From: Flavobacteriales bacterium
GTDB lineage: Bacteria; Bacteroidota; Bacteroidia; Flavobacteriales_D; Crocinitomicaceae
Length of the DNA: 64,000 nucleotides
Assembly: GCA_015665275.1 (NCBI GenBank)
Contig: JADFAL010000029.1
Coordinates: 62,001 to 126,000 of the forward strand
Direction: 5' to 3'
The position numbers and the translations under genes were made by a program. The notes beneath the pieces were generated by a model, which saw nothing but the letters and a program-made list of their open reading frames with translations, did not search any database and was not told the DNA's origin. Positions 53,822 through 60,564 of the stretch are shown here, in pieces (positions within the stretch are counted from its first letter, which is position 1; each line of letters opens with the position of its first letter).

Positions 53822-54820
53822 TTAATAATCCACTCGAAAAGCAGGATTGGTAAGGAAATCATTATCCGTTAGTGCCTCCAAAAAACGAACAAGATTCGAG
53901 CGCTCTTCGCTGGTGAGTTCAAAAGGAACAATCTCTTTTCCTTTCCCTGGATGCGGGTGCCCCCCAGATTCGTAATGTTTGATAACTTCTTCCAGCGTTT
54001 CAATACTTCCGTCGTGCATATATGGTCCGGTAACCGCAATATTTCTTAGAGTTGGAACTTTAAAAATCGCACGATCGGCTTCGGTTTCCGTCAATCGCAT
54101 GCGGCCTGAATCAGCGTACACTTCGTACAATCCATTATTCGTTAGTCGTTCTTCCGTGAAGTCTGGCCCAGAATGACATTCGGTACAATTCAAAGTTTCG
54201 AAGAACAACTCCATACCCTTCTTCTGTCCATTATCCAATGCCGCGTAGTTTCCATCGATAAACTTATCGTAGGGAGAATTATCACTGATCAGTGTGCGTT
54301 CGAACGATGCAATGGAATTCTTCAAAACGAACTCCGTTACTTCGGAGTTATATCCCTTACGCGCCCATCCCGCATACGTTGGATTATTCGCAATGCGATC
54401 GATGACTAGCAATACATGAAAATCGAATTCGTTGTGCTCTTGAATGGGCACTCCTACCTGAGATTCTAGCGATGGATTAACGCCGTCCAATAAAAACATG
54501 GTTCTGTTACCGACATTTGTTAGTGTGGGCGAATTTCGAGTTACCATGCGGTTTCGGATTCCGACACTCTTCGGTAATCCATCGGTAAAAGCCAGTTCCT
54601 GCACATGACACGTAGCACATGATATAGTCGAATCTCGAGAAAGAATTGGGTCGTAGAATAAATGCTTACCGAGTTTAACCCGATAGAATTCTGTAGAATC
54701 CACTTCGCTCATCAAAGGACGATTAGTTGCACCTATAGGTTCGGACATTGCGGCGCTTCCGCAACGCATCAATAGCAGTGCGACTCCTACGAAAAATCCA
54801 AAATAAACAACAGCTTTCAC
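53822..54820 (-). CDS. Di-heme cytochrome c peroxidase/MauG/MbnH-like lipoprotein
   Basis: Two CxxCH hemes (CATCHVQELAFTDG, CTECHSGPDF); TGPYMHDGSIETLEEVIKHYESGGHP. Confidence 0.93.
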   Translation of the reverse strand: MKAVVYFGFFVGVALLLMRCGSAAMSEPIGATNRPLMSEVDSTEFYRVKLGKHLFYDPILSRDSTISCATCHVQELAFTDGLPKSVGIRNRMVTRNSPTLTNVGNRTMFLLDGVNPSLESQVGVPIQEHNEFDFHVLLVIDRIANNPTYAGWARKGYNSEVTEFVLKNSIASFERTLISDNSPYDKFIDGNYAALDNGQKKGMELFFETLNCTECHSGPDFTEERLTNNGLYEVYADSGRMRLTETEADRAIFKVPTLRNIAVTGPYMHDGSIETLEEVIKHYESGGHPHPGKGKEIVPFELTSEERSNLVRFLEALTDNDFLTNPAFRVDY

Positions 54821-54842
54821 GACTACGATTTACTTAAAATTA

Positions 54843-54872
54843 CAAACCCGCATCTGAACAGACACGGGTTTG
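54843..54872. terminator. Hairpin between MbnP-like and CCP-like genes
   Basis: Perfect 8-bp stem CAAACCCG/CGGGTTTG with 14-nt loop; weak T-richness. Confidence 0.55.
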
Positions 54873-54893
54873 ATTCAATTATTTAGACTTCTT

Positions 54894-55871
54894 TTAGTTC
54901 TTAATTACAAATCGGAACTGCTTGTTGATTTCTCCATTGGTGAAATTGATCAAGTAGGTTCCGTCTGGAAGTTCTTTGCGGATGAAGTAGTTTCCTTCAG
55001 GGTTTTGCTTGGAAGCCTCCAAAACAATGGCTCCAGTCATATCTACTACAGTAATGTCTACATTGTTCGCCGTTGCCAAATCGTAATAGATTGTTGGGGC
55101 GTAGGCCATTTGGTAATCTGCATAGATGTTACTCTCTTCCAATGTCAACTCTTCCGTGTTCAATGAAGCATTTAGTGTAAATACTGTTTCATCATTGGTA
55201 TTCGATGAGATTAACTGATTGTTTGAACCGGCATCGTGTTGTGAGAACACACTCGCCAAATCAATCGTTTGTAACCAATCGGCAATGTTTACATCCATTC
55301 CGATCGTAATCGTGCTTCCCGAAAGGCTCATTCCTGTAAATTGGTTTACGTCGGTCAATAGCACATTTCCTAATCCGCGGAGTGAGAATGGTTGATCCGG
55401 CGTTCCATCCATATCGGTGTCAACGTCTCCATCCAAAACCCAGAAAAAGTAACCTCCTGGCCAACTCCAATCCATTGATGGAGATTGCGCAGCTAAAGGA
55501 TGCCCTGCAGACCACGATTGTGTTCCCATTCCATTGCGAACGGCATCTACCCCAAGATCAAAAGAAAACCCTTCCAAACTGGTGATGTTTTCCATTCCTA
55601 ATGAGTAAGAAGAAACGTTTCCACTAGCCAACACATAAGCATCTGGCATAGAAGTCGTTTGTCCGCCATCATGCGTTAACTCGAATCCAGACATGTAATA
55701 CTGAGCTCTTGATAAAGAAACTGCCGTTCCGTTTAAATCGTAAACTGTTCCATATTGGAACGATGCGCCTTCGAATTGATGATTCAAAACAAGATCGATA
55801 GTAGTTTGTGCTTGTGCTGTAAAACCAGCTCCCGTAAGGATTGCACTTAAAAGTAAATGTTTCGCTTTCAT
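54894..55871 (-). CDS. MbnP-like protein with T9SS-type C-terminal domain (paralog 1)
   Basis: LVLNHQFEGASFQYGTVYDLNGTAVSLSRAQYYMSGFELTHDGG, SMDWSWPGGYFFWVLDGDVD; C-terminal sorting-like domain. Confidence 0.85.
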   Translation of the reverse strand: MKAKHLLLSAILTGAGFTAQAQTTIDLVLNHQFEGASFQYGTVYDLNGTAVSLSRAQYYMSGFELTHDGGQTTSMPDAYVLASGNVSSYSLGMENITSLEGFSFDLGVDAVRNGMGTQSWSAGHPLAAQSPSMDWSWPGGYFFWVLDGDVDTDMDGTPDQPFSLRGLGNVLLTDVNQFTGMSLSGSTITIGMDVNIADWLQTIDLASVFSQHDAGSNNQLISSNTNDETVFTLNASLNTEELTLEESNIYADYQMAYAPTIYYDLATANNVDITVVDMTGAIVLEASKQNPEGNYFIRKELPDGTYLINFTNGEINKQFRFVIKN

Positions 55872-55884
55872 ATTGATAAAGGAC

Positions 55885-58996: not shown

Positions 58997-59664
58997 AACT
59001 TCACAAAGCGTTTATCTACTGTTCCTACTTCACCCACTAGGCGTGCTGTGTAAACTCCTTTTGGAAGGTCTGCCACGTTGATCGTTTGTTGTGCATTTGT
59101 CAACTCAACGGCGCGTACAATTCTTCCTGTAGCATCCATGATTTGCGCTTGATTCAATTCGTAATCTGAATCGATTGTAAACTGATCTTGCACTGGGTTT
59201 GGTGCGATTGAAATTTCGCTTGCCATTAATTCTGGAGTGTTCAAAGTAGTATTCAACATCCATGTTGCCGTATCACCATCGTTCGGGAAGTTTACGTCAT
59301 AGACATACACTTGAAGCGTTGCAACTTCGTTACCGTTAAATGGGTTTACTGTTAAGCGAACCATTCCTTGTGTTGCACCATAAATTGGAAGCATAGTAGC
59401 TTGTGTTCCAACTGGAGAAATACTACCTAAGCATTGTCCGTAAATACACACCATACCGTCCCAAGATTGAGGAACGTCATTGTAAATTACTTCTATGGCA
59501 AGTGTCACCGAGTCATTTCCAACTGCGTTCAAATATAATGGATACTGAATTGTTTGGTTTTGTGCTAGATTGGTCTCAACCGTATTTGTGGTTTCCCATG
59601 TAAATGTTTGTGCGATTGCTGCACTACCAATAAGCGTGCATGCTGCTAGTAAAAGTGTTTTCAT
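58993..59664 (-). CDS. Secreted T9SS C-terminal-domain protein of unknown function
   Basis: Signal peptide; IAPNPVQDQFTIDSDYELNQAQIMDATGRIVR...KGVYTARLVG; 4-bp overlap with next gene. Confidence 0.85.
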   Translation of the reverse strand: MKTLLLAACTLIGSAAIAQTFTWETTNTVETNLAQNQTIQYPLYLNAVGNDSVTLAIEVIYNDVPQSWDGMVCIYGQCLGSISPVGTQATMLPIYGATQGMVRLTVNPFNGNEVATLQVYVYDVNFPNDGDTATWMLNTTLNTPELMASEISIAPNPVQDQFTIDSDYELNQAQIMDATGRIVRAVELTNAQQTINVADLPKGVYTARLVGEVGTVDKRFVKL

Positions 59665-59675
59665 AATTCTTCGTT

Positions 59676-60020
59676 TTATTTTGTTTTTGGTCTTTCGTAT
59701 TTACAACAAGCGTGTAAGCTTTCATAAGCTTTTTCTGAGGCACGTACATCGTCCGTGTCATGTCCTATTGCTGCTGCATTTTGTTTGATTTGTGCGAGAG
59801 TGATTACAGAAGGATCGAACTTCACTGTGAGTTCTAAAGTTTCCAGTTCCCAATCGGCCCAGAGTACTCCTTCCAATTCATTGATTGCTTTTTCGATGCG
59901 CGTTTCACACATTCCGCATTCTCCGTATACCTTGAATGACGCGCGTTCTTTTTTGCCGCCTCCTGTAGTGAAACTTAGAGATATTATGGCCGCTAGGACC
60001 ACTATAGATTTGATTAACAT
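59676..60020 (-). CDS. Heavy-metal-associated (HMA) domain secreted protein
   Basis: SFKVYGECGMCETRIEKAINELEGVLWADWELETLELTVKFD, C-terminal HACCKYE. Confidence 0.9.
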   Translation of the reverse strand: MLIKSIVVLAAIISLSFTTGGGKKERASFKVYGECGMCETRIEKAINELEGVLWADWELETLELTVKFDPSVITLAQIKQNAAAIGHDTDDVRASEKAYESLHACCKYERPKTK

Positions 60021-60084
60021 TTTTCTTTCAATTTGTACAATTCGAATTCAGTTGCTTGCATTCCCAAATAGGGTTTACAAGGCA

Positions 60085-60564
60085 TCAAATGCGAAATACC
60101 TGAAAGAAAATTTGATAATTATGCCTTAAAATGACATCGGGCGGCCCCCTGAATGGAGGGTTTGAAATGGCAAAGTTATTCCAGCTAGATGCGAGGTATT
60201 CACCGTTGAATGCAAGGACTTTCTCAAGATCTACTTTTTGCAAATCTATGCTTGAAGTTTGCTGTTCGCTGTCGGTTTTGAAGACAACTTGATCGTTGTA
60301 ACAGCATTTACCTTTCTTGAATACTGGTTTTCCTTCTAATGCCTTCTCCTGTGCTATTTTTCTAACTTGACAGCAGGGAGGAAGTTTCTTTTCCTCTGCC
60401 TGAGTAGACTTCTTTTTGTGCATATTGCACGGTTTCGCCACGTCATAAACAGAGAATGTTTGTACCTCACCTTCACAATAATGTAGGTCCGCACCAAAGC
60501 AGGTTGAAGCCACTAGGATTGTGGTCACCCAAAAGAATACTAATGCTTTGGAGATAACTCGCAT
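60085..60564 (-). CDS. HYC_CC_PP-like Cys-rich secreted protein
   Basis: Signal peptide; LHYCEGEVQTFSV, CNM, LPPCCQ, KGKCCYNDQVVFKTDSE. Confidence 0.8.
   Translation of the reverse strand: MRVISKALVFFWVTTILVASTCFGADLHYCEGEVQTFSVYDVAKPCNMHKKKSTQAEEKKLPPCCQVRKIAQEKALEGKPVFKKGKCCYNDQVVFKTDSEQQTSSIDLQKVDLEKVLAFNGEYLASSWNNFAISNPPFRGPPDVILRHNYQIFFQVFRI

What the first reader, a model, noticed from the sequence alone, without database searches (positions are those of the whole stretch)
53822..60564. Compact T9SS-linked copper-handling operon: HYC/HMA/T9SS/MCO/MCO/MbnP/MbnP/di-heme CCP
Sequence shows eight minus-strand genes in a row, with three 4-bp ATGA overlaps (58993-58996, 58142-58145, 56862-56865) implying translational coupling. 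Almost every product has metal-ligand motifs: CGMC HMA, HYC/CC Cys pairs, HLHG/HCH multicopper motifs, MbnP-like WSW region, two CxxCH hemes. Established: MbnH-type di-heme enzymes act on MbnP proteins to create a kynurenine-containing copper site. Inference: this cluster is an exported, surface-anchored copper capture/oxidation system in a Bacteroidota, using T9SS for delivery. The combination of two MbnPs, two MCO-like proteins and T9SS sorting may be undescribed.
Basis: partly seen in the sequence, partly recalled or inferred. Interest (0 to 1): 0.9.

Follow-up and report, generated by a model that had tools for sequence, protein, structure and literature searches.

The report
Split copper oxidase beside MbnP genes
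In marine and freshwater Bacteroidota, two neighbouring genes each encode half of the copper centre of one oxygen-reducing enzyme, so the enzyme must be built from two different proteins, and here it sits in a string of genes for cell-surface copper-binding proteins.

Summary
The eight minus-strand genes and three ATGA overlaps are real. Both MbnP genes pass Pfam's MbnP cut-off; the di-heme protein is nearest to MbnH. The "two MCO-like proteins" look like complementary halves of one type-C two-domain multicopper oxidase. The second (MCO5) keeps the type-1 copper ligands and domain-1 trinuclear histidines in 36/36 homologues and has lost the domain-2 ones. The first (MCO4) keeps the domain-2 histidines in 37/37 and has lost the domain-1 site. 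In a 5.8-billion-protein database the 120 best hits for each show the same partition. The genes adjoin in 80/80 named loci, one of them read as a single ORF by a likely frameshift; 36/36 relatives with MCO5 also have MCO4. A T9SS tail is found on MCO5, not MCO4. A model of the accidental fusion gives pTM 0.81 and superposes on ceruloplasmin-type rings. A small Ig-like T9SS protein usually precedes the pair. The MbnP-MbnH module is separate and near-universal in the order, but linked to the pair in about 20 loci, in two orientations. Substrate and MbnP-to-oxidase copper transfer are inference.

The parts
58142..58996 (-). MCO4: two cupredoxin domains, no T9SS tail; domain 2 carries half of a trinuclear copper site (H211, H213, H259, H261), domain 1 has lost its copper ligands
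   Evidence: Pfam Cu-oxidase_2; ligand table 37/37; invariant columns; 120/120 best database hits keep HxHG and HDHN, none has HCH
56862..58145 (-). MCO5: two cupredoxin domains plus T9SS tail; domain 1 carries the type-1 copper (H117, C162, H169, M174) and the other half of the trinuclear site (H120, H122, H161, H163), domain 2 has lost its ligands
   Evidence: Pfam Cu-oxidase_3/Cu-oxidase; ligand table 36/36; 120/120 best database hits keep HCH-H-GM, none has a second HxHG; PF18962 listed on most hits
58355..58375 (-). HSMHLHG motif of MCO4 domain 2 (trinuclear-site histidines H211, H213)
   Evidence: sequence
58214..58222 (-). HDH motif of MCO4 domain 2 (H259, H261)
57777..57797 (-). HTIHLHG motif of MCO5 domain 1 (T1 H117; trinuclear H120, H122)
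57624..57665 (-). HCHVSSVLHVQSGM motif of MCO5 domain 1 (trinuclear H161, H163; T1 C162, H169, M174)
58993..59664 (-). P3: small Ig-like protein with T9SS type A tail, conserved W-x4-C-x4-C, directly upstream of MCO4
   Evidence: TIGR04183 41.9 bits; upstream in 66 of 79 named loci; model is all-beta, Ig/PapD-like, e.g. PorA N-terminal domain
55885..56865 (-). MbnP copy 1 with T9SS tail; overlaps MCO5 by ATGA
   Evidence: PF20243 84.3 bits; TIGR04183 31.4; W136, W138, M134 invariant, H213 45/46
54894..55871 (-). MbnP copy 2 with T9SS tail, 62% identical to copy 1
   Evidence: PF20243 79.1 bits; TIGR04183 35.1
54843..54872 (-). terminator-like hairpin between the second MbnP gene and the MbnH gene
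   Evidence: 13-bp stem, 4-nt loop, then TAATTTT; consensus match only
53822..54820 (-). MbnH-type di-heme enzyme (two CxxCH)
   Evidence: TIGR04039 246.6 bits; profile of 16 relatives matches MbnH 6e1c best
59676..60020 (-). exported HMA-domain protein (CGMC) with a C-terminal CC pair
   Evidence: PF00403 37.8 bits
60085..60564 (-). HYC_CC_PP family protein
   Evidence: NF047658 45.9 bits

Best explanation
The core is a three-gene module, P3-MCO4-MCO5, that encodes a heteromeric (split) two-domain multicopper oxidase. In known two-domain oxidases three identical subunits assemble and each trinuclear copper site sits between domain 1 of one subunit and domain 2 of the next. Here two diverged subunits have split the work. 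MCO5 supplies the type-1 copper and the domain-1 half of the trinuclear site; MCO4 supplies the domain-2 half. Only an MCO4:MCO5 assembly can hold a complete site (one T1 plus one trinuclear cluster per pair). Shown here: ligand partition, gene adjacency, co-occurrence, T9SS tail pattern. Inferred: physical complex, copper loading, activity. MCO5 and P3 carry T9SS tails, so the enzyme is probably carried to the cell surface, with tail-less MCO4 travelling bound to MCO5. In this genome the module is joined to a second one. An MbnH-type di-heme enzyme probably oxidises a tryptophan in the two T9SS-tailed MbnP proteins to kynurenine in the periplasm, making a copper site, before they go to the surface. 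HMA and HYC_CC_PP would handle copper in the periplasm. Together they most likely bind and oxidise copper (or another reduced metal) at the surface; that last step is the weakest.
For: Ligands: MCO5 keeps all 8 domain-1 ligands in 36/36 and has no domain-2 trinuclear His; MCO4 keeps all 4 domain-2 trinuclear His in 37/37 and no member keeps the domain-1 set. Same in the best 120+120 proteins of a 5.8-billion database. Ordinary single-gene type-C oxidases with both halves exist in the same phylum (L185, L186), and the best solved relatives of both genes are type-C 3g5w/2zwn. Genetics: MCO4 then MCO5 in all 80 named loci, with 4-bp overlap in 47 and 1-bp in 15 of 79. In 119 relatives, the 36 genomes with MCO5 are all among those with MCO4; the one further true MCO4 is a stop-riddled remnant. 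Structure: a 689-aa ORF that joins both halves by frameshift folds with pTM 0.81 and superposes on six-domain rings (ceruloplasmin, factor V/VIII, MnxG: TM to query 0.50-0.60) better than on one two-domain oxidase (0.34). Homotrimer with shared trinuclear site: PMC13151041. MbnP-MbnH; Kyn copper site and di-heme partner from CorA/MopE (PMC3912023; PMC3621798).
Against: No biochemistry. The fused model rests on an accidental fusion and a mostly unpaired alignment, and no inter-residue distances were available, so the interface itself was not measured; rmsd to the rings is 8-19 A. A third partner or another ring closure is unknown. T9SS transport of an untailed partner is not established. MCO5's tail in the window is borderline (PF18962 26.9 against a cut-off of 27). 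Most MCO pairs are not near MbnP genes (20 linked of 69 loci that could be scored), so functional coupling to MbnP is not general. MbnP and MbnH score below the NCBIfam equivalog cut-offs.
Confidence: 0.77

Rival explanations
1. MCO4 and MCO5 are two independent cupredoxin-type copper carriers, not one enzyme: MCO5 a type-1 blue-copper electron carrier, MCO4 a His-rich copper binder.
For: Each alone lacks a complete trinuclear site. Degenerate multicopper proteins exist (the factor V/VIII fold appears among structural matches).
Against: The histidines each keeps are exactly the complementary trinuclear ligands, held invariant in 37/37 and 36/36 although they would serve no purpose alone. Strict adjacency and co-occurrence.
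Confidence: 0.13
2. The pair is a split copper nitrite reductase rather than an oxidase.
For: Both genes also match nitrite reductase models and structures (TIGR02376 61 bits for MCO5).
Against: Far below the family cut-off of 296 bits. MCO5 has the oxidase motif HxHG with both histidines in 36/36, whereas nitrite reductases have Asp at the first of these (own knowledge).
Confidence: 0.04
3. One reading: one eight-gene surface copper capture and oxidation system with two oxidases.
For: The eight-gene order recurs in two close relatives and shorter versions in others.
Against: MbnP-MbnH occurs in most relatives without the oxidase genes, the oxidase pair mostly occurs without MbnP nearby, and neither oxidase gene can be a complete oxidase alone.
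Confidence: 0.06

Closest known systems
Type-C two-domain multicopper oxidases (Nitrosomonas europaea 3g5w, metagenomic 2zwn)
   Same: Fold, domain order, T1 copper in domain 1, trinuclear site shared between domain 1 of one subunit and domain 2 of the next; best solved relatives of both genes
   Different: Known ones are homotrimers of one gene with three equal sites (PMC13151041). Here two genes with complementary loss, one site per pair, and a T9SS tail on one subunit
Ceruloplasmin, factor V/VIII and MnxG (six-domain ring)
   Same: Ring of cupredoxin domains in which only some domain interfaces keep copper; the fused model superposes on them
   Different: One polypeptide of six domains; here four domains on two polypeptides
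Mnx complex (MnxEFG) and heterodimeric Pleurotus laccase POXA3
   Same: Oxidases with more than one kind of subunit (PMC5622069; PMC3129051)
   Different: There one gene encodes the whole multicopper oxidase and the partners are accessory proteins; here the catalytic copper site itself is divided
MbnP/MbnH and MopE/SACCP, CorA/CorB
   Same: Copper-site protein beside a di-heme enzyme; MopE and CorA are surface-associated and use kynurenine near copper (PMC3912023, PMC3621798)
   Different: The window's MbnPs carry T9SS tails, occur as two tandem copies and sit in an operon-like string with an oxidase

Membership tests
Type-C two-domain multicopper oxidase | T1 ligands H, C, H, M in domain 1 | tested here: met
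   MCO5 36/36; MCO4 not met
Type-C two-domain multicopper oxidase | Four trinuclear His in domain 1 and four in domain 2 of the same polypeptide | tested here: not met
   Split: domain-1 set on MCO5, domain-2 set on MCO4
Type-C two-domain multicopper oxidase | Trinuclear site at a subunit interface | tested here: inconclusive
   Required by the ligand partition; fused model ring-like but distances not available
Type-C two-domain multicopper oxidase | Homotrimer, oxidase activity | not testable with these tools
   Needs purified proteins; a homotrimer of either gene could not form a complete site
MbnP (PF20243) | Pfam gathering score | tested here: met
   84.3 and 79.1 bits against 27
MbnP_like_WxW equivalog (TIGR04052) | Equivalog cut-off 140 bits | tested here: not met
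   25.9 and 22.9 bits; the W-x-W itself is invariant in 46/46
MbnP | Trp converted to kynurenine, copper binding | not testable with these tools
   Needs mass spectrometry and metal binding
MbnH (TIGR04039) | Equivalog cut-off 362.85 bits | tested here: not met
   246.6 bits, but best of all NCBIfam models (MauG 222)
MbnH | Nearest solved relative is MbnH rather than classical peroxidase or MauG | tested here: met
   Family profile: 6e1c 236 bits, peroxidases 207 or less, MauG 117. The single sequence alone scores a classical peroxidase slightly higher (150 against 135)
T9SS substrate (type A tail) | TIGR04183/PF18962 C-terminal domain and T9SS in the genome | tested here: met
   P3 and both MbnPs over the TIGR04183 cut-off, MCO5 borderline, MCO4 none; SprA, PorZ
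Copper nitrite reductase | TIGR02376 cut-off 296 bits | tested here: not met
   61 and 26 bits

The most novel reading that the evidence does not exclude
A hetero-subunit class of multicopper oxidase, in which two degenerate two-domain paralogues each keep half of one active site, is exported to the bacterial surface through T9SS by only one tailed subunit carrying the other, and in some lineages receives copper from kynurenine-containing MbnP proteins encoded in the same gene string.
Probability: 0.3. Interest if true: 0.88.

Novelty: new variant of a known kind. Interest (0 to 1): 0.7.

Why it matters
Multicopper oxidases are thought to have evolved from two-domain homotrimers to three- and six-domain single chains. 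An obligate two-gene form with complementary loss is a further route, and a natural case of paralogues sharing out one active site. [quoted passage not shown] a search for complete two-domain proteins would miss a split pair, and these genes carry only names such as 'multicopper oxidase domain-containing protein' in databases. At least 220 relatives of MCO4 were found among species genomes. The tail on one subunit only makes a clean test of whether T9SS can export a complex. The link to MbnP/MbnH gives a concrete setting in which to ask what surface kynurenine-copper proteins are for.

Tried and rejected
P3 as a fifth cupredoxin domain closing the ring: its model is Ig/PapD-like, not cupredoxin. 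L157 as a natural fusion that would prove interaction: the join runs through MCO4's end in a shifted frame and keeps MCO5's signal peptide, so it is read as a frameshift or sequencing error and used only as a way to model both halves together. Two alignments for that model put MCO4 rows on the MCO5 half and were discarded; A5 is the correct one. Phylum-wide search with the MCO4 profile (399 genomes) returned only the window itself plus ordinary oxidases, so the family is patchy and concentrated in Flavobacteriales, with some in Saprospirales, Cytophagales and Sphingobacteriaceae, and one MAG labelled Ignavibacteriae. Nitrite reductase rejected on cut-off and motif. A His/Met-rich loop in MCO5 as a sign of a copper substrate: present in many but variable, not relied on. 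Solved structures for MbnP by sequence: no meaningful match. Literature: no paper in the held library on T9SS-exported multicopper oxidases of this kind, split oxidases or MbnP in Bacteroidetes; the library misses most subscription papers.
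Full report
What is there. The finding's eight genes are present at the stated places on the minus strand, with three ATGA overlaps. In order: HYC_CC_PP (60564-60085), an exported HMA protein (60020-59676), a small T9SS-tailed protein here called P3 (59664-58993), MCO4 (58996-58142), MCO5 (58145-56862), two MbnP proteins (56865-55885, 55871-54894) and an MbnH-type di-heme protein (54820-53822). 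The genome has T9SS: SprA, and PorZ lies just beyond the cluster (51093-53411). The closest named relative carrying the cluster is Fluviicola sp. XM-24bin1 (85% identity in MCO4), so the window comes from a Crocinitomicaceae-type member of Flavobacteriales.

The central result. MCO4 and MCO5 were aligned with solved type-C two-domain oxidase 3g5w, in which domain 1 holds the type-1 copper and four of the eight trinuclear-site histidines, and domain 2 the other four. Across 36 MCO5 sequences all eight domain-1 ligands are invariant, and no sequence keeps a trinuclear histidine at any of the four domain-2 positions. Across 37 MCO4 sequences the four domain-2 histidines are invariant, while the domain-1 trinuclear site and the type-1 cysteine and methionine are lost; one position keeps His in 9/37, another in 4/37, and one sequence has Cys, but none has the set. 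The 120 best database proteins for each gene agree: 120/120 MCO4 have the HxHG and HDHN motifs and none has HCH; 120/120 MCO5 have HCH-H-GM and none has a second HxHG. Neither protein can make a trinuclear site alone; together they make exactly one. Single-gene oxidases with both halves exist in the same phylum (L185, L186).

Why it should be one enzyme. In two-domain oxidases the trinuclear site is built from domain 1 of one protomer and domain 2 of the next in a homotrimer (PMC13151041; PMC3192119). The pair fits a hetero-version. MCO4 is directly followed by MCO5 in all 80 named loci, with a 4-bp overlap in 47 and a 1-bp overlap in 15 of the 79 measurable. In 119 relatives, 36 genomes have MCO5 and every one has MCO4. 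The remaining MCO4 hits are other oxidases (G019, G052, G105) or a stop-riddled remnant (G084). One locus (L157) joins the two genes in a 689-aa ORF by a frameshift. This is probably an error or a broken copy, not evidence of fusion, but it let both halves be modelled together. The model has mean pLDDT 87 and pTM 0.81. Its best structural matches are the six-domain rings of factor V/VIII, ceruloplasmin and MnxG with TM-scores of 0.50-0.60 to the query, whereas a lone two-domain oxidase covers 0.34. So a good part of both halves is arranged as in a ring. Inter-residue distances were not available.

Export. P3 and both MbnPs carry T9SS tails over the NCBIfam cut-off and MCO5 is borderline in the window. 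Most of the 120 listed MCO5 homologues have a PF18962 tail in the precomputed domains and none of the 120 listed MCO4 homologues does. Either MCO4 travels bound to MCO5 or the complex works in the periplasm; the first is preferred and is inference. P3 precedes MCO4 in 66 of 79 loci; its model is Ig/PapD-like with a conserved cysteine pair.

The MbnP-MbnH module. MbnP is found in 113 of 119 relatives and the di-heme protein in 90 of 119, usually paired. Tailed MbnPs keep W136, W138 and M134 in 46/46 and H213 in 45/46. A profile of the di-heme family matches solved MbnH 6e1c best (236 bits against 207 for classical peroxidases and 117 for MauG), though the single window sequence scores a classical peroxidase slightly higher. 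Both fall short of NCBIfam equivalog cut-offs, so they are MbnP/MbnH-like by family, not proven functional equivalents. For MopE and CorA, kynurenine near copper and surface location are established (PMC3912023).

How the two modules relate. They are separable but linked more often than chance. Of 69 loci that could be scored, 20 have MbnP or MbnH within 4 kb: 9 downstream on the same strand, 10 in convergent orientation and 1 upstream. They fall mainly in two clades of the MCO4+MCO5 tree. With one or two such pairs per roughly 3.5-Mb genome, fewer than one would be expected by chance (own estimate). HYC and HMA precede the string only in the window's close clade. Tandem MbnP copies (62% identical) occur beside the pair in the window and its two nearest relatives.

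Conclusion and limits. Shown: gene content, ligand partition, adjacency, co-occurrence, tail pattern. Inferred: complex formation, copper loading, oxidase activity, surface location. Least certain: substrate (copper or another reduced metal) and any copper transfer between MbnP and the oxidase. No report of such a split oxidase was found in the searched library, which does not hold most subscription papers.

Noticed in passing
window 54843-54872: Strong terminator-like hairpin between the second MbnP gene and the MbnH gene; it could lower expression of the modifying enzyme relative to its substrates.
   Followed up: partly
L157:7920-9989: MCO4 and MCO5 joined in one 689-aa ORF by an apparent frameshift; sequencing error or broken copy not distinguished.
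   Followed up: partly
L086, L087, L089, L090, L091, L100, L101: In other genera the tailed MbnP is followed by two different di-heme proteins in tandem (about 325-355 and 362-368 aa), as if two modifying enzymes serve one MbnP.
   Followed up: no
L102:9492-11392 (G000:C25): The same genome has a third MbnP gene (271-aa frame, matching only over the MbnP domain) with its own di-heme neighbour.
   Followed up: no
L057, L061, L128, L136, L140, L143, L183: An extra small protein (about 139-145 aa) weakly related to P3 directly follows MCO5.
   Followed up: no
G084:C3:216903-217289: MCO4 remnant with four stop codons in a genome without MCO5, as expected if the two are lost together.
   Followed up: partly
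P0133: A close MCO5 relative (64% identity) comes from a MMETSP transcript set, so a relative may be transcribed in an alga-associated bacterium.
   Followed up: no
window 53822-54820 and 50 relatives: At the alignment position of the inter-heme Trp of classical peroxidases (FWDG) none of 51 relatives has Trp (window Leu111); alignment there is uncertain.
   Followed up: partly
L176, L178: A further 438-aa weak MCO5 relative lies between P3 and MCO4.
   Followed up: no
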